Origin: an uncultured Chloroflexales bacterium | GTDB taxonomy: Bacteria; Chloroflexota; Chloroflexia; Chloroflexales; Chloroflexaceae | NCBI GenBank assembly: GCA_937918935.1 | Contig: CAKZSI010000028.1 | Location: forward strand, 1-64,000 | Direction: 5' to 3' | Length of the DNA stretch: 64,000 bases | Shown here: positions 19,926-30,527 of the stretch, piece after piece | How positions within the stretch are numbered: the stretch's first letter is position 1 | Layout of the letters: each line of letters opens with the position of its first letter | Program-made: the position numbers and the translations under genes | Notes under the pieces: model-generated | Database searches by the model: none | Told to the model about the DNA's origin: nothing | The model's input: only the letters and a program-made list of their open reading frames with translations

Positions 19926-20207
19926 ATGAGCGACCGCGTTCTCTCCACCGCCATCGCCCGCGAGGCTATCAACGCCTTCCAGCGCATCGTTACCGGCCCG
20001 CTGCTCCAGCAGATCAGCGAGTTGAACACCCAGGGCCAGATCCTCAGTGAACCGAGCAACTGGGATGGGCGCCTGGCCGCCGAGTTCCGCGCCCAATGGA
20101 CCGACACCCACCAGAAGCTGATCAGCACCCAGCAGGCCCTCGAGGAACTGCGCCGCCAGATCCAGCAGATCAACCAGAACATCATGCAGGCCGGCGGCAA
20201 CATGTAG
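19926..20207 (+). CDS. WXG100-family protein (EsxA-like), first copy
   Basis: A 93-residue all-helical protein with the hallmark Trp-x-Gly turn (W46-D-G48, in PSNWDG) halfway between two amphipathic helices (about 8-40 and 50-85). Length, the absent signal peptide and the central W-x-G fit the WXG100 family of type VII secretion substrates, which leave the cell as folded helical-hairpin dimers. The C-terminus is Gln/Asn-rich; the usual Y-x-x-x-D/E signal is not evident. The ATG at 19926 is the natural start, since upstream residues in the open frame are not helical. It heads the cluster that encodes the EccC/EssC ATPase at 22.8 kb. Confidence 0.8.
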   Translation: MSDRVLSTAIAREAINAFQRIVTGPLLQQISELNTQGQILSEPSNWDGRLAAEFRAQWTDTHQKLISTQQALEELRRQIQQINQNIMQAGGNM

Positions 20208-20418
20208 CTCGCGCAACTGTCCGCGCGGGTCTCACCGCAGGCACGTTCGCCGGCGTTGGACCCGCGCGGCCCAATTCCGCCCTTGATTGTGAGCATAGCC
20301 TACCAGGCACGGCGAAGCATCGCCCCACCCTCACACGATCGGCGAGCCCTTCGCTCAGGGTGACCCGCATCCCCGAACCGCTGACGATGCCCTCGCCCGT
20401 GCCACGAGGAGCCTGGCC

Positions 20419-22011
20419 ATGAACATCAGTTCGGCGCGCCCCGCGGCGCTCACACGCTACGCCCGCGCCACCGACGCCTCCGCCACGGGGCTTGAAGGCG
20501 AGGCCAGTCGCCTCGCCCGCATTCTGTCCCACTTCGCCGCGCGTTGCACCGAGTATCGCGTACCCGAAACCGACGCACTGGCCGGCCGTCTATCGGTTGC
20601 GGCCCGTGATCAGGCCGCCCTGGCCGCGTGGACGGCTCAGGTGGCTCAGTCCTTCAGCGCTGCCGACACACGCGCTGCAGCCGCGGCAGCCCTCCGCGCC
20701 CAGGTCATCCGCTGGATGAGCGACCACCGCATCCGTATGTCGCTACCAGCCGGGGTTAGACAATTGATCGAACTGGTTCGCAGTCGCCCCGAACTGGCTG
20801 GCGAGGTCTGGAACGGCATTGCCACGATGCTCGACTACCATCTCGCCGAAATCGAGCGTGTCATAAAGATGTACGGGCCTGCCTGGCCCTCGCAGATCCC
20901 CTTCCTGATGGCGAAAATGGGTCCCTCCCTGGCGCTGCTGGGCATGCTTGCCGGGGGCACGGTAGTTGCCAGTGACTGGTCGCGCTGGATGGCTCAACCG
21001 ATAACCTCTCCTGAGGACTTCTTGAGTCTCGTCCATTCCAGCGTCTGGGGCCTGATGTACCGCCCTGTTGATGAGCAGCGCATGCGTTCAATTACCGCGC
21101 GGCTTGACCGCATCCACCTGGCAGTCTGCGGCACGCTAGGTACATGCTCGCACCCGCGGCCGTCGGCGTTTGCCGAACCGCTCCGCGACCCCGTGCGGGG
21201 CATTCTTGATGTCCCGGTGGAGGCGATGTACGACCCTGGCACGGTGCGCCATCGAGGCGCGGATGGCCGGCTCTACCTGAGCCCCCAGGCGCTGATGTAT
21301 GGCGAACACAGCCTCATCGGCTCCTACTCCGGCGAGCAGGTGCGCCTGGCGCGGGTGGGCGCCAATGAGTACGCCTTTGGCATCTCCGGGTTGGACGTTG
21401 CCAATGCCCAGGGACCGAACACCTATTATGCCGTTGCGCTCACCTCGCAGGGTGACGCGGGGAGCGAAAACAAATACTTTGCCTACGTCAAAGAGCAACT
21501 CCTTGGCCACCTCGAGCGTCTGCCAGAGGGCAGCACCATTCACCTGGCCGGTCACAGCATGGGCGGCGGCATAGTCATGCTCGCGCTCAACGATCCTGAG
21601 GTGCAGCAGCGCCTGCAGAGCGGCAACTTCACCGTCGGTTCGGTAACCACCTTTGGCGCGGTGCGCCCCAACCGCCCGCGGGTCAACGGCGTGCCGCCGG
21701 AAACGCCGAGCGCGCTCGCCGGGCCGCTGTTTGCCAATACGGTTGTGCATCACTACGTGGACGCCGACGACGCGCTGGCGCTCAACGTCGGCGCAGGCCA
21801 CGATCCGAGGCGTTTCGCCAACGTTCATCTCCTCGACGACGGCGATATCACCGACCCGCGGGTCGCCCATCTCTCATATGATACCAGCAGCTATCGCGGG
21901 CTGCCGGCGGCGGCGCAGGTGCTGCCCTTCGCCATCGACCCCGCTTATCACGAGGTGTACGCGCCAATCCCGCCCGCCACACCTCCAGCGCCCTCACCCT
22001 GCGGAAACTGA
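20419..22011 (+). CDS. putative type VII secretion-linked lipase/esterase with helical N-terminus
   Basis: A 530-residue protein. Residues 1-100 are predicted helical and Ala/Arg-rich, with Trp 71, and resemble the WXG/LXG-like targeting domains of type VII effectors. Residues 110-230 are also largely helical, with one hydrophobic stretch (about 168-186). The C-terminal domain (about 290-515) has the alpha/beta-hydrolase nucleophile elbow GHSMGGG (Ser 380), Asp candidates at 448-450 (HHYVDADDALALN) and His candidates at 484 and 511. The neighbourhood of Ser 380 (AYVKEQLLGHL ... STIHLAGHSMGG) matches the class 3 lipase type. There is no signal peptide. The ATG at 20419 follows GAGGAG. An antibacterial or surface-acting effector exported by the adjacent machinery is inferred. 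No immunity gene is apparent beside it. Confidence 0.75.
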   Translation: MNISSARPAALTRYARATDASATGLEGEASRLARILSHFAARCTEYRVPETDALAGRLSVAARDQAALAAWTAQVAQSFSAADTRAAAAAALRAQVIRWMSDHRIRMSLPAGVRQLIELVRSRPELAGEVWNGIATMLDYHLAEIERVIKMYGPAWPSQIPFLMAKMGPSLALLGMLAGGTVVASDWSRWMAQPITSPEDFLSLVHSSVWGLMYRPVDEQRMRSITARLDRIHLAVCGTLGTCSHPRPSAFAEPLRDPVRGILDVPVEAMYDPGTVRHRGADGRLYLSPQALMYGEHSLIGSYSGEQVRLARVGANEYAFGISGLDVANAQGPNTYYAVALTSQGDAGSENKYFAYVKEQLLGHLERLPEGSTIHLAGHSMGGGIVMLALNDPEVQQRLQSGNFTVGSVTTFGAVRPNRPRVNGVPPETPSALAGPLFANTVVHHYVDADDALALNVGAGHDPRRFANVHLLDDGDITDPRVAHLSYDTSSYRGLPAAAQVLPFAIDPAYHEVYAPIPPATPPAPSPCGN

Positions 22012-22036
22012 CTCGAAAAGAGGGGGCTCAGGGTTT

Positions 22037-22140
22037 CACATACCCCTGCCTGCAGGGAGGGTCTGACTGCGCTGATCGGCGTCAGCACAGTGGCCCTCAC
22101 ATACCCCTGCCTGCAGGGAGAGTCTGGGAGGGCCGGTCCC
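22037..22140. repeat. pair of direct repeats within the secretion cluster
   Basis: CACATACCCCTGCCTGCAGGG followed by AG-GTCTG occurs near 22038 and again near 22097, about 60 bp apart, in the 278-bp gap between the lipase gene and the second WXG gene. It belongs to the family of CCTGCC-type intergenic modules. Confidence 0.6.
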
Positions 22141-22289
22141 TCTCAGAAACCCTCGTTCCTCGCTCGGTTGGGGGAGGGGAAATCCCCCGCCCTCTCTTGC
22201 CGACGAGGATGGGCCAGGAGAGCAGAGCCTTCCCAGGGACCCTCTTCGCTAACCATTCGTGTCAGAGGACTCAAACCAGGAGAGCATGA

Positions 22290-22661
22290 ATGTCACACGA
22301 TATCTGGCAAGATGTGCGCTGGGACCACGGTGCGGCCGCCGAAGCCGTAGCGGCGCTGCAACGCGCCGCTGGCGAGATCGACCGCTCGCTCGCCGAGATC
22401 GGGCAGACCAGCCGCGAAGCCACGACCGACTGGCTCGGCCCGCACCGCGAGCATTTCGATAGCTGGCGCGGTCGCGTGCACACCGAGTTAAGCTCCATCG
22501 CCGCGGCGTGTCGTCGAGCCGCCTCCGCCGTGCAGCAAGCCAGCGCCCGCGCCCACGAAGAGCAGGCCCGGCGCCTGCGCGAGCGCGAGGAACACTATCG
22601 CCGCGAGCGTGAGGAACGTGAGCGGCGGCAACGCGAGCGCAGCGGTCCTCGCGCTGTATAA
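22290..22661 (+). CDS. WXG100-like protein with a charged C-terminal tail, second copy
   Basis: A 123-residue helical protein. The first 90 residues form a WXG100-type hairpin with W48-L-G50 in TTDWLGPHREHF, between helices at about 14-45 and 52-88. Residues 89-123 are an extremely charged tail (repeated E, R, Q) predicted to be a continuous helix, unusual for WXG100 proteins. The ATG at 22290 follows AGGAG (in CCAGGAGAGC) at proper spacing. It lies 98 bp before the ATPase gene and may be co-transcribed with it. A heterodimer with the protein at 19926 is a reasonable inference. Confidence 0.75.
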   Translation: MSHDIWQDVRWDHGAAAEAVAALQRAAGEIDRSLAEIGQTSREATTDWLGPHREHFDSWRGRVHTELSSIAAACRRAASAVQQASARAHEEQARRLREREEHYRREREERERRQRERSGPRAV

Positions 22662-22748
22662 GATGTGCGGTTCCCGGCGCTATGTGCGGGGTCAGCGCGA
22701 TGCCAAACCCAGATGTGCCGCATCCGACCCTGAATCTACAATCGCCCT

Positions 22749-22755
22749 GAGGAGG
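22749..22755 (+). promoter_or_regulatory. ribosome binding site fixing the GTG start of the ATPase
   Basis: GAGGAGG ends 4 nt before the GTG at 22760, which fixes the start despite the non-ATG codon. Confidence 0.7.
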
Positions 22756-22759
22756 CCAG

Positions 22760-25700
22760 GTGCGCGATCACACCTTCAACCGGCCGCCACGCATGCGCCC
22801 GCGCTGGGCCACCGAGCGCGTGGATCTACCCGAACCACCGGCGCCCCCCGAGCCAGCGCCCACCGACTGGGCGCAACTGGTGCTGCCCCTGGCGGGCGCG
22901 GGCATCTTCGCCAGTGCCGCCAGCCTCGGCGGCGGCAACCCGCTGCTGGTCGGGTTGCCCAGCGGCGCCCTGGCGCTTATGGGGATCGGCGCGGCGCTTG
23001 CCAACCGCCGCGCCGCCGCGCGCCGCGCCGCCGCACAGTACGCCGAACGGCGCGCCTACTTCGAGGATCGCCTGGAGAGCCAGCGCGCCCGGCTGCGGCG
23101 CCTCTACGACCAGGAGCGTGGTGCGCGGCTCTACCTCTGGCCCGATCCAGGAGAGTTGCTGCTGATCGCCGGCGTCACCGGCGGCAGCGCCCCCGAGCCG
23201 CGCCTCTGGGAACGCCGCCCGGACGACGATGACTTCCTCGACCTGCGGGTGGGCAGCGGCAATCTCCCTGCCGCAAGCCAGGCGCACGTGCCGCCCCCCA
23301 CTCCGACTGGCCCCGTGGACCAGCGGCTGCTCCGCATTGCCGCCGAACACGCCATGTTGCGCCAGACGCCCATCAGCGTGCCCCTCGCCACGCTTGGCTC
23401 CCTCGGCCTCGCCGGGCCGCGCCCGGCGGTCCTGGCCCTGGCCCGCGCCCTGCTCTGGCAGGCAGCCGTGCTCCATGCCCCCGGCGATCTGCGCCTGGCC
23501 GCCCTCTACCCGCCCGCGAGCGCCGCCGAGTGGGAGTGGCTCCGCTGGCTGCCGCACACAACGCCGCTCAACAATGACCCTTCGCCGGGTCTGCGCATGC
23601 TCGCTGGTCACCCCGAAGTCGCCGAGCGCCTCACCAGCGACCTGCTCGACCAGCTCAGCCGGCGCAGGGAGCGGGCCGCGCGCCCCGATGCCGCCCCGCC
23701 CACCCCGCGCATCCTGGTGCTGGTTGACGGCGACGATCTTCCACGAACCTACACCGCCATCACCGAATTGCTGCGCCACGGCGGGCCGCTGGGCATCGCC
23801 ACGCTGCTGCTGGTTCCCGCCTGGTCGTTGCTCCCCGAGTCCTGCGCGGCGATGCTCGAACTGGAAGCCCATGGCGCCCGCTGGACCCGCGCCGGTGATC
23901 AGTGGCCCCGCGAGCGCTTTTCGCCCGACCAGGCCGATCTCGGGGCCAGCGATCAACTCGCGCGCCACCTGGCCGGCGTGCGGCTCGTGGAAAGTGGCGG
24001 CGCGCAGGACGTGCCCCGCTCGGTCCGGCTCTTCGACCTGCTCGGGGTGAGCACAGCCGGGGATCTGACGCCGCCGCACTGGTGGAACGAACTGCCCGTT
24101 ACTGCCTGGCGCGCCGATGTGCCCGTCGGGGCCGGGGCCGATGGGCAACCCATCTGCCTCGACCTGAACGAGAGCCGCCATGGCCCCCACGGGATCATCG
24201 CCGGAGCGACCGGCGCGGGCAAGAGCGTGCTGCTGCAGAGCATCATCGCCGCCCTGGCCACGACCCATCCCCCTGAGCGTCTGCAACTGCTGCTGATTGA
24301 CTTCAAGGGAGGCGCCGCCCTTATGCCCTTCGCTGCTCTGCCCCACTGCGCGGGGCTGGTCACCGACCTGGAAGGGCGCCTCGCCGAGCGGGCTATGACG
24401 GCGATCAAGAGCGAATTGCGCCGGCGCAAGGAAGTGCTTAAGAGTGTGGCAACCGCCCACGGCGCCCGCGTCGAGAACATCGGCGACTATCGCACCCTGG
24501 CTGCCCGTGCCGGGCTGCCGCCGCTGCCCAATCTGCTGATCGTCGTGGACGAGTTTGACGAACTGGCCCGCACCTACCCCGGCTTTGTGGCCGAGTTGAT
24601 CCGTGTCGTGAAGCAAGGCCGGTCTCTGGGGGTGCATCTGCTCCTGGCAACCCAGCAACCCGCGCGGGCCGTCTCCGACGAAATCCGCAGCCAGCTCACC
24701 TTCTTCATCGCCCTGCGTCTCGGCAGCGCCGAAGACAGCCGCGAGATGCTGCTCAAACCCGACGCCGCTTTCCTCCCCACCGATCTGCCGGGGCGGGCCT
24801 TCTTCCGCGTCGGCGCCGAGACACGGCTGATGCAGGTGGCCCAGGTCACCACGCCGCACCGCGCCGCTGGCGCTGCTCGGGCCGCGGGGCCGCGGGTGAG
24901 CTTCCTGCGCGACGGGCGCGAGCAGCCCGTTACCGTCGCTCACGATCCGCTTCGCGACCGGCACGAGACCGATCTCGACGTCCTGGTGCGCGCCCTGCGT
25001 GAGGCCGCCGAGGCTCGCGTCCCCACTCTGGCCGGCTGGCAGCCGCCCCGGATCTGGCAGCCGCCACTCCCCGCGCGGCTGCCCCTCGCGGCCCTTGGTG
25101 AGCGCGTGGCCGAGGGGTGGAGCAAACCTCCCGCCGGGCCGGCCTGGCTCCGCCAGGCCATCGGCCTGCTCGATCTGCCCCAGGAGAGCCGGCGCGAGGC
25201 CTTCACCGTCAGTCTGGCCGATGGTCACCTGGCGGTGATTGGCGCCCCCGGCAGCGGCAAGACCACCCTGCTACGTGCCCTGGTGTTCGGCCTGGCTCTG
25301 TCGCACGCGCCCGACGACCTCTGGTGCTACTTGATTGACGCCGGCGGGCAGGGCCTCGGTCCCCTGGCCGGCCTGCCGCACGTCGGGGCACACATCCAGG
25401 CCCGCGAACGCGAACGGGTGCGCCGCCTGATGCGTATGCTTGACGCGACCATTCGCGAACGGCAAGAGGCGCTACGGGCCGCCGACGCCGCCGATCTGCC
25501 GGCCCTGCGCGCTGGCGGCGGGCGCCTTCCGGCCATTCTGGTGGTGATTGATAAAATCGCTGTGCTGCGGGAAGAGTTTCGCGATGGTCACAGCGGCGAC
25601 GAGATCATTGACGACCTGATCCGTGTCGCGCGCCTGGGCCGGCCCTTTGGTGTGCATCTTGCGCTCAGCGCCGACCGCGCGCCCGATCTCACCTACCGGC

Positions 25701-26896
25701 TGCTTTCGCTGATGGAGACCCGTATTGCCCTGCGCCTGCCGGAGTTGCACGACTACGCCGATCTACTCGGCGCACGGGTGAGCGCGCCGATCCCGCAGCA
25801 ACTGCCGGGGCGCGCCCTCGTGGCGCACCCTGACTATGGCCCGCTCGACCTGCACATCGCCCTGCCGGGCCTCGAGAGTGAGGGCGCCGCGAGCGATACG
25901 GGCGAGGAACGTCCCGGCGCGTTGGATGCCGAACTGGCTGTCGAACTGCGCCAGCAGGCAGCGCGGTTGAGCGCCGTCTGGTGGGAACGTCGCGCCAACA
26001 CCGGCGCAGGGCCGACGCCAATCGAACTGCTGCCCGAAAGTCTGAGCCTCGCGTCGCTGACGGACGCAGCAGCGGCCCCTGCGTCTGGCGACTCGCTGAC
26101 TGCACCAATCGGGCGCGAGAGCCTGACCCTGGGACCGGCCTGGCTGCGCCTGAGCCAGGAAACGCCCCACGCGCTGATCATCGGACCGCGCCGCAGCGGC
26201 AAGACGGGCGCCCTGCTCTGCGCGGCGCGCGCCCTCATCAACCGCTACGGCCCCGGGGAACTGCGCCTGTTCGTGCTCGACGGGCCGCGCGGGGGGCTAC
26301 GGCCACTGCACGCGCTGCCCCACACGCTGCTCTACGCCGACGACGAGCCTGGCGCCGCCGCGCTCCGTGCCAGCCTCCTGGCCGCCCGTGCCGGCGCGCC
26401 CACCCTCCGCCGGGTCGTGCTGATCGATGACTACACCCTCTGCCGTGAGCGCATGCGCGCCCAGTTGACCCAGAGCTTCGGCAGCGAGCCCAATCTGCAC
26501 GAACTGCTCTGCGAGATTGCTCAGGTCGGCGGTCAGCATGGCGAGCATCTGCTGGTCGCCGCTGGCGTCACCTACGCCGACGACAACCTGCTGCGCGCCC
26601 TCGACGCTGGCCGCGCCGGTCTGTTGCTCTGGCCCGGACGCTACGATCCCGGCACGCGCCTGCTGGGGATCGCCCTGCCCCTGGCCGACCAGCGCGACAG
26701 CGACCAGCCGCCCGGTCGAGCACTATTGGTGCGCGACGAAGAGCACGAGTTGGTGCAACTCGCCCAGACCGATGCCGCGTGGCCCTCCTCCTGGGAGGGC
26801 ACAGCCCTCCCGGAGCCTCACGGGCAGGAGGAGGCGGAATCCGGGGTTCCGCCTTCCTCTCCAACCGTTCATGCCTGCAACGAACCTTCTCTCTGA
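22760..26896 (+). CDS. essC: type VII secretion ATPase, EccC/EssC-like, FtsK/SpoIIIE family
   Basis: A 1378-residue membrane ATPase that would drive export of WXG100 proteins. After a Pro-rich N-terminus there are two membrane helices (about 38-54 and 60-82), a helical DUF-like domain (to about 450) and three FtsK-type modules. Module 1 is complete: Walker A GATGAGKS (482-489), LLIDFKGG (511-518) and Walker B VVDEFD (595-600). Module 2 keeps GAPGSGKT (828-835), but its Walker B reads VVIDK (Lys 932 replaces the catalytic acid). Module 3 has GPRRSGKT (1142-1149) and VLIDDY. Active first and degenerate later modules are the known pattern in EccC. N-terminal FHA domains, typical of Firmicutes EssC, are absent. 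The start is GTG at 22760. The symbol is by family resemblance. Confidence 0.9.
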   Translation: MRDHTFNRPPRMRPRWATERVDLPEPPAPPEPAPTDWAQLVLPLAGAGIFASAASLGGGNPLLVGLPSGALALMGIGAALANRRAAARRAAAQYAERRAYFEDRLESQRARLRRLYDQERGARLYLWPDPGELLLIAGVTGGSAPEPRLWERRPDDDDFLDLRVGSGNLPAASQAHVPPPTPTGPVDQRLLRIAAEHAMLRQTPISVPLATLGSLGLAGPRPAVLALARALLWQAAVLHAPGDLRLAALYPPASAAEWEWLRWLPHTTPLNNDPSPGLRMLAGHPEVAERLTSDLLDQLSRRRERAARPDAAPPTPRILVLVDGDDLPRTYTAITELLRHGGPLGIATLLLVPAWSLLPESCAAMLELEAHGARWTRAGDQWPRERFSPDQADLGASDQLARHLAGVRLVESGGAQDVPRSVRLFDLLGVSTAGDLTPPHWWNELPVTAWRADVPVGAGADGQPICLDLNESRHGPHGIIAGATGAGKSVLLQSIIAALATTHPPERLQLLLIDFKGGAALMPFAALPHCAGLVTDLEGRLAERAMTAIKSELRRRKEVLKSVATAHGARVENIGDYRTLAARAGLPPLPNLLIVVDEFDELARTYPGFVAELIRVVKQGRSLGVHLLLATQQPARAVSDEIRSQLTFFIALRLGSAEDSREMLLKPDAAFLPTDLPGRAFFRVGAETRLMQVAQVTTPHRAAGAARAAGPRVSFLRDGREQPVTVAHDPLRDRHETDLDVLVRALREAAEARVPTLAGWQPPRIWQPPLPARLPLAALGERVAEGWSKPPAGPAWLRQAIGLLDLPQESRREAFTVSLADGHLAVIGAPGSGKTTLLRALVFGLALSHAPDDLWCYLIDAGGQGLGPLAGLPHVGAHIQARERERVRRLMRMLDATIRERQEALRAADAADLPALRAGGGRLPAILVVIDKIAVLREEFRDGHSGDEIIDDLIRVARLGRPFGVHLALSADRAPDLTYRLLSLMETRIALRLPELHDYADLLGARVSAPIPQQLPGRALVAHPDYGPLDLHIALPGLESEGAASDTGEERPGALDAELAVELRQQAARLSAVWWERRANTGAGPTPIELLPESLSLASLTDAAAAPASGDSLTAPIGRESLTLGPAWLRLSQETPHALIIGPRRSGKTGALLCAARALINRYGPGELRLFVLDGPRGGLRPLHALPHTLLYADDEPGAAALRASLLAARAGAPTLRRVVLIDDYTLCRERMRAQLTQSFGSEPNLHELLCEIAQVGGQHGEHLLVAAGVTYADDNLLRALDAGRAGLLLWPGRYDPGTRLLGIALPLADQRDSDQPPGRALLVRDEEHELVQLAQTDAAWPSSWEGTALPEPHGQEEAESGVPPSSPTVHACNEPSL

Positions 26897-27140
26897 AGGG
26901 GAGGCTCGTAGGTGCTGCGGCCCTCGCACCCTCGCCGAGACAAAGCCTCCCTGGAGGGGTAAGGGGAGGCGCAGTCTCCCCGTACCTCCCGTTCCGCCCG
27001 CGGCGGTCGCGCCCCCGATCCAAACGCGAATATAGTTGCCGCCGCGGGCGGCCCAGGAGGGATCGCGAAGGGCGCAGCCCTTCGCACCTCCCCCAGTATA
27101 AAGAGCCGCGCAGCGAAACCAGGGCTAAGGTGACGAAACT
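26897..27140. other. intergenic region with hairpin repeats inside the secretion cluster
   Basis: 244 bp between the ATPase and the YukD-FHA gene. It holds GGGGAGGCTC..., a GGAGG-rich stretch and GCGAAGGGCGCAGCCCTTCGC near 27063-27083 (an 8-bp inverted repeat). There is no gene and no clear promoter, so read-through from the ATPase gene is possible. Confidence 0.55.
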
Positions 27141-27794
27141 ATGACCCGACAACAACAGGAGATGCTGACCGTAACCCTGCACTGGCTCATCGGTGACAGG
27201 GAGCAAACCACAACCATCGTCTGCGAGGACAGCCCTCCCGAAACGCTGCTCCCGCTCCTGATTGACGGTTGCGGCCTGCCGGTTCGGAACGAGCGGGGCG
27301 ATCCGATCGCCTACACTCTGCGGCTGGCTTCACCGGCGGGCCGGTTCCTGCGCCCGGCTGAAAGCGCCAGTGCGCAGGGCGTGCGGTCAGGCAGCCATCT
27401 ATGGTTGACGGAGCGCAGCCTTGCTACGCCACGCCGCTGCCTGCTCGGGCTTCCCGACGGTAGCGAAGTGGCCCTCCCTCCACGTGGCGTCACACTGAGC
27501 CGGGCCTGGCTGCTGCAGGCCCTGGCACTGCTCAACCCCGACACGTACCATCGCGAACTGGCCCTGCTGGAACAGCGCCGCTCCACCTATCGCTACGTGT
27601 CCAATCGCTCCCACTGCCTCATCGCTGCCACCGAGACTGGCCCATGGAGCGTCTCGACCGAGCGCATCGACGTGGCAACACTGCTCAACGCAATGCGCAT
27701 TGCCCCCGGCGCACCCGAACCCCTGCGTGACGGCGACATCCTGACGCTCGGCGAGGAGGGGTTGAGCCTGTCCATCACCCTGATCGGCGACTGA
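27141..27794 (+). CDS. YukD/EsaB ubiquitin-like domain fused to an FHA domain
   Basis: A 217-residue cytosolic protein. Residues 8-90 resemble the ubiquitin-like YukD/EsaB fold of type VII systems: LTVTLHWLIGDREQTTTIVCEDSP, a helix PETLLPLLIDGCGLP, then AYTLRL and SGSHLWLTE. Residues 98-217 have the order of a forkhead-associated domain: LLGLPDGSEVALPPRGVTLSR, then VSNRSHC (153-159), a W-x-V strand, ATLLNAMRI near 179-187 and the LRDGDILTLG stretch (195-204). FHA domains bind phosphothreonine peptides. Ser, Arg and His of the binding loop are present, and Asn 183 is at the expected place. I know YukD/EsaB as a separate protein of about 80 residues, with FHA modules located at the N-terminus of EssC, so this fusion looks like a rearranged layout. 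Its ATG follows AAGGTG. Confidence 0.75.
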   Translation: MTRQQQEMLTVTLHWLIGDREQTTTIVCEDSPPETLLPLLIDGCGLPVRNERGDPIAYTLRLASPAGRFLRPAESASAQGVRSGSHLWLTERSLATPRRCLLGLPDGSEVALPPRGVTLSRAWLLQALALLNPDTYHRELALLEQRRSTYRYVSNRSHCLIAATETGPWSVSTERIDVATLLNAMRIAPGAPEPLRDGDILTLGEEGLSLSITLIGD

Positions 27795-27814
27795 AATCCA
27801 ACATCGCATTATCC

Positions 27815-28936
27815 CTACCGCGCCCGGAATACCACGGCGGCGCGCTGATCCGGCGCGCCGTTCAGGTACACGGTGGTGGTTGCGCCGGCAACATTGCCTG
27901 TCCGGGGCGTCCAGAAGAGCACGACGCTCCAGGTTGAGGCCCCCAGGCCGCAGCGCCCGGCATAACCGCTGGCATCGGTCTGGTTCTGGTAACTGTGGTC
28001 GCCGTTGTTGATGCCCAGGACCGCCCCGGCGATTGGTCCGCCAGGGCCAAGGACCTGAACGTCAATGCACGAGGCGAACTGACCACTATTACCAGTGCCG
28101 TCGAAGCTTTTACGTTGCGCAACGCCGAAGGTGGCGCCGGCAGATCGCGCCGGGGGACGGGGGGCCACGGTTGGACGTTGCGAGGGGAGGGCCGCCGGCG
28201 TGGCGGGCGCGGTGGTAGCGATCGGCGGGTTCAGCTTGCTTGCCAGGCGCTCCACACAAGACTGTGCCGCGTCACTCGCCTGAAGCGCCATCGCCCGCTC
28301 GCAGAACTGATGCGCTTCCTGCCAACTCGCCGGGTCGCGGGCGCTATCGCCAGCCTGCTCGAACACGCCCGCCGCGGCGAGCAAGCCGGTCGCCGCGATC
28401 CGCTCCGCACCGGGCAGGTGGGGCTCAGTGGCGGCGGCCACGCTGGCCCGCCCGGCCAGGGCGCGGGCCATGTCGAGCGCGGAGGGGTCTTCGGCGACTA
28501 TCTGGCGGGCCAGAAGGGCCAGTCGCAGATCCTCGACGGCCAGGAGAGTAACGAGCGCGCGCTCCAGACCAAGCAACTCGTCTCGCAGCGCCGGCTCGTT
28601 CGGGTGGAGCGCCAGAGCCAGGCCCACCTGGTCGAGGGCCGTGCGGAGCGCCCGCGCCTCACCAGGGGCAGCGACGATGGCCTCGCGGGCCAGACCCATC
28701 CGCGCGCGCGCCAGCATCTCCACCCGCGCCGGATCCACCGGAGCGCCGAGCAACTCCACGGCGGCGGCGTGGTCGCCGCGCTCCAGGGCGACCCGGGCAT
28801 CGCTGAGCGCGGCGGCCTCTACCGGCGTAGCCGGATCGTTCGAGGAAGGAGTGACAACCGGCGCCGCCGGCCCTGCGCAGGCTGCCAATGCGACGGCCAG
28901 CAGAACCGAGGCGATCAGCTTGCATACGCGTAGCAT
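27815..28936 (-). CDS. TPR-like lipoprotein with a C-terminal beta domain
   Basis: A 373-residue lipoprotein: signal segment LIASVLLAVALAAC with the modified Cys at 20, so it would sit on the outer face of the membrane. Residues 40-235 are helical repeats of TPR character (ALSDARVALERGDHAAAVELLG, then LALALHPNEPALRDELLGLERAL). A Pro-rich linker (about 240-265) leads to a beta domain (about 275-373) with CIDVQVLGPGGPIAGAVLGI and CGLGASTWSVVLFW, resembling a carboxypeptidase-regulatory-like sandwich. I chose ATG 28936 because the signal begins there and AAGGA lies 8 nt upstream. It ends 20 bp from the stop of the convergent YukD-FHA gene and follows the VWA-FHA gene in direction. An assembly role for the secretion system is inferred from position only. 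Confidence 0.75.
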   Translation of the reverse strand: MLRVCKLIASVLLAVALAACAGPAAPVVTPSSNDPATPVEAAALSDARVALERGDHAAAVELLGAPVDPARVEMLARARMGLAREAIVAAPGEARALRTALDQVGLALALHPNEPALRDELLGLERALVTLLAVEDLRLALLARQIVAEDPSALDMARALAGRASVAAATEPHLPGAERIAATGLLAAAGVFEQAGDSARDPASWQEAHQFCERAMALQASDAAQSCVERLASKLNPPIATTAPATPAALPSQRPTVAPRPPARSAGATFGVAQRKSFDGTGNSGQFASCIDVQVLGPGGPIAGAVLGINNGDHSYQNQTDASGYAGRCGLGASTWSVVLFWTPRTGNVAGATTTVYLNGAPDQRAAVVFRAR

Positions 28937-28954
28937 CGGGAGATCCTTGCGTAG

Positions 28955-28999
28955 CTGGCAGGGGTGTAGGGAAACCTGGTTTCCCCGCACCCCTGCCAG
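28955..28999. repeat. dispersed palindrome with 10-bp outer arms
   Basis: CTGGCAGGGGTG ... CACCCCTGCCAG encloses TAGGGAAACCTGGTTTCCCCG. It forms a long stem in the leader of the lipoprotein gene, 19 bp upstream of its start codon, so transcription or translation of that gene may be affected. Confidence 0.8.
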
Positions 29000-29064
29000 T
29001 TACACTATTATCACGGTAGGATCTGCGGCGAAGCCGCACAACAACAGGATGGAAAAGACTTATC

Positions 29065-29087
29065 CTGGGAGGGCCGCGCCCTCCCAG
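29065..29087 (-). terminator. terminator after the VWA-FHA gene (GGGAGGGC hairpin type)
   Basis: CTGGGAGGGC-CGC-GCCCTCCCAG is a perfect 10-bp stem. On the minus strand it follows the stop at 29121 and is followed by GATAAGTCTTTTCC, a T-rich tail. The same hairpin recurs at 37009 and 40602. Confidence 0.6.
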
Positions 29088-29120
29088 ACTCTCGCCTGCT
29101 AGAACTCTTTTCGAAACGGG

Positions 29121-30527
29121 TCACGCGGCGGCATCGTCATCCGCCGGGGTCGCGATTTGCACGCAGAAGCGTACCTGGGGGCCGACGCGCACAATCTCCC
29201 CCGGTTCGAGCGGCTCGGGCGCGCCCGGCGTCAATCGCCGTCCTGGATCGCCAACCAGGGTGCCATTGGTGCTCTCCATGTCGGTGATCTCCACCTGATC
29301 GCCGATCAGCGAGAGGCGCGCGTGCAGGCCCGAAACCCAGCTACTGGCAATGCAGACATCGCAGCCTGGATCGCGCCCCACGGTGATCTGGCGGCTTCGC
29401 ACCGGCCATACCCGGCGCTCACGGCCATCCCAGACCACTACCTCCAGAGCCGGCAGGGCGCCGCCGGTCACGCGCCGCGCGGTCGTCACCGCGCCCGGGG
29501 CGCGGTAGCGTCTGGTGCTGTCTGCTGAGCGTTCAGGAGCGCCGAAGTGCGACCGGCGCCGCCGGATTACCACCATTCCCCCCACGACCAGCGGCAGGGC
29601 GCCCAGGCCCATCCACCATACGGGGAAGGGTTGGTCGGAGGTCGGGAGGTCAAACGTAGCCGTGGCGGGCGCGCCGCAGCCGGTCAGGGTGAGTTCGTGT
29701 TCGCCAGGGGCCAGGCGCTCCAGGTCCACCCGCACCTGGAGGGGCGCGGTCGCCTCCAACCAGCCGGCGAGGCGCTGGTCAACGGCCATGCTCCGCGCGG
29801 GGAGCGCTGCGCTATCGGCGGCCGCGTAGCTCAGGTAGAGCGCGTCCAGGTTGGCTGCCAGGGGCGCGAGGGGGCCACGCACCTCCACGTCGCTGGCGCC
29901 CAGGTCCACGACGGCCAGCGCCGGGTCGGCTGGCAGCAGTGTCGCGGCAGCATCGGGAGCGCTGGCGGCAAACAACGCCAGGGCTCGCGGCCCCGCCGGG
30001 GCGTCTGCCAGCGCCTCGGCGGCCAGGCGTAGCGCCTGGCCCAGGACGGGCGGCTGTTCAGCGAGGGGACGGGGCGCGGCAACGAGCGCGCCGAGGGCCC
30101 GCCGCACGGCCACTTCATCGCTGGTCAGCGGCAACACCAGCCGCGCGGTCGCATCGAAGGCCACCAGACCGGCCAGCGAACCGGGCGGTAGCCGGTCGAG
30201 CAGCGCGTTTGCTCGTGTGAGCGCATCGTGCAGGCGGGTGCTGTGGGGCGTGCCGGTTTCGTCCATCACCGGCGTCGTTTCGACCACCACGACCAGGGCC
30301 AGCGGAACCGTGGAACGGGACGGTGCGCTTACGGGGTAGGTGACGCCGTCAATCGTCGCGGTCAGCGTGGGTATGGTCTCGCCAGGACAGGCGAGTTCGG
30401 CGAGGAGACTGGCGGGGGTGACTTCAGTGACACGGAGGATGGGCGGCGCTTCCTGGGCAAAGGCTGCGGCGGGAACAACGCTCAGCAGCAGGAGCGCAAC
30501 CAGAGCAAGGCGGAAACACAGGCGCAT
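29121..30527 (-). CDS. VWA-like domain protein with one membrane span and a cytoplasmic FHA domain
   Basis: A 468-residue protein: signal peptide (1-25, ending AFAQ), an extracytoplasmic von Willebrand A-like domain (about 70-235), a beta-rich stalk (to 297), a membrane helix (302-323, followed by RRRR) and a cytoplasmic FHA domain (about 380-460). The FHA has VGRDPGCDV (383-391), VSGLHARL (398-405; Gly replaces the usual Arg) and ESTNGTLV (418-425). The VWA metal site is altered: the expected D-x-S-x-S reads ETTPV (83-87), so metal binding is doubtful. It is the second FHA protein of the locus and could receive phospho-threonine signals across the membrane. The ATG at 30527 follows GGAGGTG at 30534-30540 (minus strand). 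The upstream frame is ignored for that reason. Confidence 0.8.
   Translation of the reverse strand: MRLCFRLALVALLLLSVVPAAAFAQEAPPILRVTEVTPASLLAELACPGETIPTLTATIDGVTYPVSAPSRSTVPLALVVVVETTPVMDETGTPHSTRLHDALTRANALLDRLPPGSLAGLVAFDATARLVLPLTSDEVAVRRALGALVAAPRPLAEQPPVLGQALRLAAEALADAPAGPRALALFAASAPDAAATLLPADPALAVVDLGASDVEVRGPLAPLAANLDALYLSYAAADSAALPARSMAVDQRLAGWLEATAPLQVRVDLERLAPGEHELTLTGCGAPATATFDLPTSDQPFPVWWMGLGALPLVVGGMVVIRRRRSHFGAPERSADSTRRYRAPGAVTTARRVTGGALPALEVVVWDGRERRVWPVRSRQITVGRDPGCDVCIASSWVSGLHARLSLIGDQVEITDMESTNGTLVGDPGRRLTPGAPEPLEPGEIVRVGPQVRFCVQIATPADDDAAA

What the first reader, a model, noticed from the sequence alone, without database searches (positions are those of the whole stretch)
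19926..30527. Compact type VII (WXG100) secretion-like locus outside the classical phyla
Seen: two W-x-G helical proteins, a helical-N-terminus lipase, an EccC/EssC-type ATPase with three P-loops and a YukD-FHA fusion on one strand. Convergent to them are a TPR-like lipoprotein and a VWA-TM-FHA protein. Known: ESX/T7SS machines need membrane partners such as EccB/D/E or EsaA/EssA/EssB, and none is recognisable here. Inference: either a minimal ATPase-WXG system with lineage-specific membrane parts (the lipoprotein and VWA-FHA proteins being candidates), or the rest of the machine is elsewhere in the genome. It is the best candidate for an undescribed system in the window.
Basis: partly seen in the sequence, partly recalled or inferred. 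Interest (0 to 1): 0.82.

Follow-up and report, generated by a model that had tools for sequence, protein, structure and literature searches.

The report
Chloroflexota type VII secretion locus
This green-non-sulfur bacterium (Chloroflexota) carries genes for a type VII protein-export machine of a layout not described for its phylum: the usual motor and small WXG export proteins are present, but the known membrane partners are replaced by sensor-like and phospho-signalling proteins.

Summary
Window 19926-30527 encodes two WXG100 proteins, a secreted-lipase candidate with an N-terminal helical hairpin, a full-length EccC/EssC-type ATPase, a YukD-FHA protein and, convergent to them, a TPR-fold lipoprotein and a VWA-TM-FHA protein. 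The order is conserved across Chloroflexales genera. The two convergent genes do belong: elsewhere they form a cassette VWA/FHA - Ser/Thr kinase - PP2C phosphatase - TPR lipoprotein beside the same ATPase, once in a ten-gene co-directional run. A second, complete copy lies elsewhere in the same genome; the window copy has lost kinase, phosphatase and the EspG chaperone found in relatives. EssB, EccB, EccD and EsaA were not detected in this genome, with positive controls. The nearest published layout is T7SSc of Bacillota, but FHA fusions, the membrane-spanning VWA and the lipoprotein differ, and no T7SSc ATPase was available for a tree. I call it a new, T7SSc-like variant of type VII secretion. 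Chloroflexus-like genomes keep only five genes near the ATPase and lack the VWA and TPR proteins genome-wide, so those are probably regulatory rather than the channel. Secretion itself is untested.

The parts
19926..20207 (+). WXG1: WXG100 (EsxA-like) protein, 93 aa, W46-D-G48
   Evidence: Pfam WXG100 over cut-off; aligned in ten loci
20419..22011 (+). Candidate effector: N-terminal helical hairpin (residues 8-42 and 52-102) plus C-terminal alpha/beta-hydrolase (class 3 lipase-like, GHSMGG, S380)
   Evidence: Abhydrolase_6 E 4e-5, just below cut-off; AF2 model; VIA-align Z 9.9 to triglyceride lipase 4tgl, 168 aligned, 3.5 A; hairpin domain found in exactly two genes of this genome
22290..22661 (+). 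WXG2: second WXG100-like protein with charged C-terminal tail, 123 aa
   Evidence: weak Pfam (18 bits); invariant W-x-G in alignment; conserved place just before the ATPase
22760..26896 (+). EccC/EssC-type ATPase, 1378 aa, two N-terminal TM helices, no FHA, Walker A at 482, 828, 1142; GTG start after TGAGGAGG
   Evidence: tree
27141..27794 (+). YukD (ubiquitin-like) domain fused to a degenerate FHA-like domain (start may be 27162)
   Evidence: YukD E 1.4e-4, FHA E 0.013; alignment of 11
27815..28936 (-). Lipoprotein (lipobox ending LAAC) with TPR-like helices 36-235 and conserved C-terminal beta domain
29121..30527 (-). VWA-TM-FHA protein: signal peptide, VWA outside, TM near residue 303, FHA inside with G-R, S, H, N-G retained; VWA metal site degenerate (ETTPV)
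   Evidence: Pfam VWA_2 36.7 and FHA 52.7 bits; alignment; topology

Best explanation
It is a type VII secretion system of a Chloroflexota layout. The EccC/EssC-type ATPase sits in the membrane by its two N-terminal helices and drives export of the WXG1 and WXG2 proteins (probably as a pair) and of the lipase, whose N-terminal helical hairpin is its export domain. YukD-FHA docks on the ATPase, as the ubiquitin-like part of EccD does in ESX. VWA-TM-FHA and the TPR lipoprotein form an outside-to-inside sensor: VWA and TPR outside, phosphothreonine-reading FHA inside, ancestrally written and erased by a membrane kinase and a PP2C phosphatase encoded with them. In this copy kinase, phosphatase and EspG chaperone are lost; the kinase of the second locus or another kinase may serve. 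Shown: gene content, homology, synteny, linkage, active-site residues, and failure to detect four classical partners. Inferred: export, docking, sensing and phospho-control.
For: EccC/EssC homology over nearly the whole length; WXG100 homology; conserved order in named Chloroflexales loci; EspG over Pfam cut-off in a relative between WXG1 and effector; one co-directional run in L060: WXG1-EspG-effector-WXG2-ATPase-YukD/FHA-VWA/TM/FHA-kinase-PP2C-TPR; same cassette in C26 of this genome and in G094, G070, G274, G012; VWA-FHA hits (E<=1e-30): 12 of 17 on the same contig and within about 16 kb of a T7SS ATPase, none in the Chloroflexia genomes tested that lack the ATPase; kinase Lys, HxD and Asn kept; ATPase clade separate from T7SSa and T7SSb; EssB 0/57, EccB 0/57, EccD and EsaA absent in own genome, with positive controls.
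Against: No secretion data. Chloroflexus-like and Chloroploca-like genomes keep the ATPase locus without VWA and TPR genes, so these are not obligate. WXG1 has no YxxxD signal at its C-terminus. YukD, FHA and WXG2 are below curated cut-offs singly. The hairpin domain has no Pfam family and no profile similarity to the WXG proteins.
Confidence: 0.85

Rival explanations
1. It is a true member of T7SSc (Garrett et al. 2024) that reached Chloroflexota by descent or transfer, and only the FHA fusions and the lipoprotein are local additions.
For: Near-identical inventory in relatives and in the second locus: FHA-less EccC, WXG100, YukD, membrane kinase, PPM phosphatase, vWA, EspG.
Against: In the window locus kinase, phosphatase and EspG are missing; TscE is predicted cytoplasmic whereas this VWA has signal peptide, TM and FHA; no TscC sequence could be fetched, so common descent is untested.
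Confidence: 0.35
2. The five genes kept in Chloroflexus-like genomes (WXG1, EspG, lipase, WXG2, ATPase) are the whole machine; the ATPase is its only membrane part, and YukD-FHA, VWA-FHA and lipoprotein are optional regulators.
For: In L061 and L062 these five adjacent genes are the conserved block around the ATPase, with no YukD nearby; no TPR or VWA-FHA family hit in any of the seven genomes of that genus.
Against: Membrane parts could lie elsewhere in those genomes or be too divergent; YukD was not sought genome-wide there with its own profile.
Confidence: 0.3
3. The ATPase is an FtsK/HerA-type DNA pump and the small proteins are unrelated helical proteins.
For: Shared FtsK_SpoIIIE domains.
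Against: EccC/EssC models score about ten times the FtsK model; best solved relative is T. curvata 4nh0, aligned over 1000 residues; WXG proteins match ESAT-6.
Confidence: 0.02

Closest known systems
T7SSc (Paenibacillus, Brevibacillus; Garrett, Higginson and Palmer 2024, PMC11217815)
   Same: EccC-like ATPase without FHA, WXG100, YukD-like protein, and in relatives or the second locus Ser/Thr kinase with TM, PPM/PP2C phosphatase, vWA protein, EspG-like protein
   Different: YukD fused to FHA-like domain; VWA is extracytoplasmic and fused through a TM to FHA; extra TPR lipoprotein; second WXG protein; window copy lacks kinase, phosphatase, EspG; phylum not covered by that survey
T7SSa / ESX of Actinomycetota
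   Same: FHA-less EccC, paired WXG100 proteins, EspG in relatives
   Different: no EccB or EccD in this genome; ATPase clade separate
T7SSb of Bacillota
   Same: separate YukD-like protein, lipase substrates, kinase-fold partner in relatives
   Different: no EssB or EsaA; no FHA on the ATPase; kinase keeps catalytic residues while EssB is a pseudokinase
T7SSj / T7SSe (PMC11217815)
   Same: kinase, phosphatase, separate FHA protein; TsjD carries a TPR domain
   Different: those ATPases carry N-terminal FHA domains; here the TPR part is a separate lipoprotein

Membership tests
Type VII secretion system (general) | EccC/EssC-type membrane ATPase with several FtsK domains | tested here: met
Type VII secretion system (general) | WXG100 protein encoded alongside | tested here: met
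Type VII secretion system (general) | ATPase-dependent export of WXG100 proteins | not testable with these tools
   needs secretome
T7SSa (ESX) | EccB | tested here: not met
   0 of 57 genomes; Streptomyces control rings
T7SSa (ESX) | EccD | tested here: not met
   none in own genome; rings over cut-off in G215 and G231
T7SSa (ESX) | EccE and mycosin MycP | not tested
T7SSb | EssB/YukC pseudokinase | tested here: not met
   0 of 57, B. subtilis control rings
T7SSb | EsaA | tested here: not met
   absent in 16 Chloroflexia genomes, two Bacillota plasmid controls ring
T7SSb | N-terminal FHA domains on EssC | tested here: not met
   protein begins as EccC5, query residue 6 aligned to residue 5; no FHA among the 25 Pfam families shown for the ATPase
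T7SSc | FHA-less EccC-like ATPase, WXG100 and YukD-like protein | tested here: met
T7SSc | Ser/Thr kinase with TM and PPM phosphatase in the cluster | tested here: not met
   absent from the window cluster; present in the second locus C26 and in relatives
T7SSc | EspG-like protein | tested here: not met
   no hit in this genome or genus; present in most relatives
T7SSc | cytoplasmic vWA protein TscE | tested here: not met
   vWA present but with signal peptide, TM and FHA
T7SSc | ATPase groups with TscC | not testable with these tools
   no TscC sequence reachable

The most novel reading that the evidence does not exclude
The conserved minimum of this family, as in Chloroflexus-like genomes, is a five-gene type VII machine whose EccC-type ATPase is its only membrane protein and itself forms the export path, with VWA-FHA, YukD-FHA, kinase, phosphatase and TPR lipoprotein added as a contact- or envelope-sensing switch.
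Probability: 0.15. Interest if true: 0.82.

Novelty: new variant of a known kind. Interest (0 to 1): 0.58.

Why it matters
Type VII secretion has been studied almost only in Bacillota and Actinomycetota. A conserved system in phototrophic Chloroflexota with FHA, kinase and phosphatase partners shows that phospho-regulated, FHA-less EccC systems are not confined to those phyla. The comparison also separates a near-invariant five-gene core from a regulatory cassette, which makes the open question of what the minimal type VII channel is directly testable.

Tried and rejected
Plain DNA translocase: rejected by HMM scores and full-length EccC alignment. Chance neighbourhood: rejected by synteny. 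Kinase in the window locus: none. EspG elsewhere in the genome: none found. Getting a T7SSc ATPase: the phylum search cannot be centred on a plasmid record, and no T7SSc cluster was recognised among the plasmid hits. Profile link between the effector hairpin and WXG100: none; the PE25 match (Z 7.2, 2.1 A, 73 aligned) is below what is telling for helices. EspG and hairpin profiles against solved structures: nothing useful. TPR lipoprotein fold search: generic TPR and BamD-like matches only. Supplementary data of PMC11217815 could not be read. Papers: no description of a Chloroflexota cluster found, but the held library is open-access only.

Full report
What is there. The window is bases 1-64000 of contig 28 of a 4.6 Mb, 85-contig, 99.99% complete genome. 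Its named relatives are Chloroflexales: Oscillochloris, Viridilinea, Chloroploca and unnamed Chloroflexi MAGs. On the + strand lie WXG1 (19926-20207), a lipase-like protein (20419-22011), WXG2 (22290-22661), the ATPase (22760-26896) and YukD-FHA (27141-27794); 20 bases further, on the - strand, end the TPR lipoprotein (27815-28936) and then the VWA-TM-FHA gene (29121-30527).

The motor. The ATPase scores 578 bits with the EssC model and 504 and 331 bits with the EccCa and EccCb models, against 54 bits for FtsK. It aligns from its first residues with EccC5 and over 1000 residues with EccC of T. curvata, so it has no N-terminal FHA domains. Two N-terminal TM helices are predicted by hydropathy. 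Walker A sites are at 482, 828 and 1142; only the first ATPase domain has the DE Walker B end, the second has DK and the third DD. A separate FtsK-like protein exists at C67. In a maximum-likelihood tree of the N-terminal half, the Chloroflexales ATPases form one clade (bootstrap 99 including L063) apart from T7SSa (100) and T7SSb (100); one other Chloroflexota genome, G215, groups with T7SSa.

The small proteins. WXG1 is 47-87% identical across loci; W and G are invariant across WXG1 and WXG2; a profile of both finds ESAT-6 at E 8e-6 and S. aureus EsxA at 1e-4. The effector hairpin (SSA..P..L..YA... C.EY ... F..AD) matches no Pfam family and occurs in exactly two genes of this genome, one at each ATPase locus, with different C-terminal parts: lipase here, a 1000-aa protein at C26. 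AlphaFold2 gives a two-helix hairpin (8-42, 52-102) at modest confidence, then helices and an alpha/beta-hydrolase resembling class 3 lipases. Ser380, Asp448, Asp451, His461 and His484 are invariant, so the enzyme is probably active.

The partners. VWA-FHA and TPR lipoprotein are not bystanders. In L060 all genes run in one direction: WXG1, EspG, effector, WXG2, ATPase, YukD-FHA, VWA-TM-FHA, kinase-TM, PP2C-TM, TPR lipoprotein. The cassette VWA/FHA-kinase-PP2C-TPR recurs in C26 of this genome and in G094, G070, G274 and G012. L063 has the FHA-TM and VWA-TM parts as separate genes, with a kinase and a PP2C-PASTA protein. VWA-FHA hits at E<=1e-30 lie within about 16 kb of a T7SS ATPase in 12 of 17 cases; of the rest, G024 has the cassette (without PP2C) on a 4.2 kb contig and G070 has it on a contig apart from the ATPase. 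Chloroflexia genomes without the ATPase have none. The kinases keep Lys, His-x-Asp (Tyr-x-Asp in one) and Asn; among those checked the DFG Asp is lost only in L008, a near relative. The window locus has neither kinase nor phosphatase, yet its FHA keeps the G-R, S, H and N-G positions used for phosphothreonine.

What is missing. YukC/EssB: 0 of 57 ATPase-bearing Chloroflexota genomes, control B. subtilis positive. EccB: 0 of 57, Streptomyces plasmid control positive. EccD: absent in the own genome, full-length only in G215 and G231. EsaA: absent in 16 Chloroflexia genomes, two plasmid controls positive. EspG passes the Pfam cut-off in a relative and is found in 18 of 24 genomes but not in this genus. 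EccE, mycosin and EssA were not searched.

Core and periphery. Two genomes of the genus g3 share WXG1, EspG, lipase, WXG2 and ATPase as the conserved block around the ATPase, beside housekeeping genes in another orientation, and no g3 genome has VWA-FHA or TPR hits. The invariant membrane part is therefore the ATPase itself, and VWA-FHA and TPR are better read as regulatory.

Spread. A match at E <= 1e-60 was found in 57 of 301 Chloroflexota genomes drawn across the phylum (46 of 217 of good quality), with most of the family and order of the window positive.

Comparison with the known. WXG100 proteins in Chloroflexi are mentioned in PMC3935865 and PMC10765036, and T7SS in chloroflexi in a table of PMC3482391, without a description of the cluster. 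Garrett et al. 2024 (PMC11217815) describe T7SSc-T7SSj only in Bacillota and Actinomycetota. T7SSc has the same kinds of parts as the full Chloroflexales cassette. The window copy fails several of its features (kinase, phosphatase, EspG, cytoplasmic vWA), and the ATPase tree test could not be made, so I file it as T7SSc-like and not as a member.

Function. Most likely it exports WXG proteins and a lipase or phospholipase to the envelope or to neighbours. The lipase is of one type across several genera and has no obvious immunity gene beside it in the window, which argues for an envelope or general secreted enzyme rather than a polymorphic toxin; the C26-type effectors differ in length between genomes. 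All of this paragraph is inference.

Noticed in passing
G000:C26 about 77-93 kb (L103, L006): A second, complete T7SS locus in the same genome, with kinase, PP2C, a 1000-aa effector with W-rich repeats, and an FGE-sulfatase-like protein inside the locus plus a similar one just beyond the TPR gene.
   Followed up: partly
L073 3509-11851; also G012:C65, G061:C73, G238:C109: ORFs of about 2900-2970 aa holding successive EccC ATPase modules, some beside the VWA/kinase/PP2C/TPR cassette and EspG: a giant-motor type VII system.
   Followed up: partly
L074 (G215) and G231: Some Chloroflexota carry full-length EccD; the G215 ATPase groups with T7SSa (bootstrap 100). No EccB was found in them.
   Followed up: partly
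L008 16222-17118: The kinase of the near relative L008 has lost the DFG aspartate (ALG), possibly a step towards the loss seen in the window genus.
   Followed up: no
G078, G102, G110, G274: Several EspG-like genes away from the main locus in one genus, function unclear.
   Followed up: no
window 22012-22289: Intergenic stretch between lipase and WXG2 holds two copies of CACATACCCCTGCCTGCAGGGAG and other GC-rich repeat-like elements.
   Followed up: no
L021 10001-13921, L019 5132-9085: ATPase frame broken in these two assemblies; sequencing error or decay not resolved.
   Followed up: no
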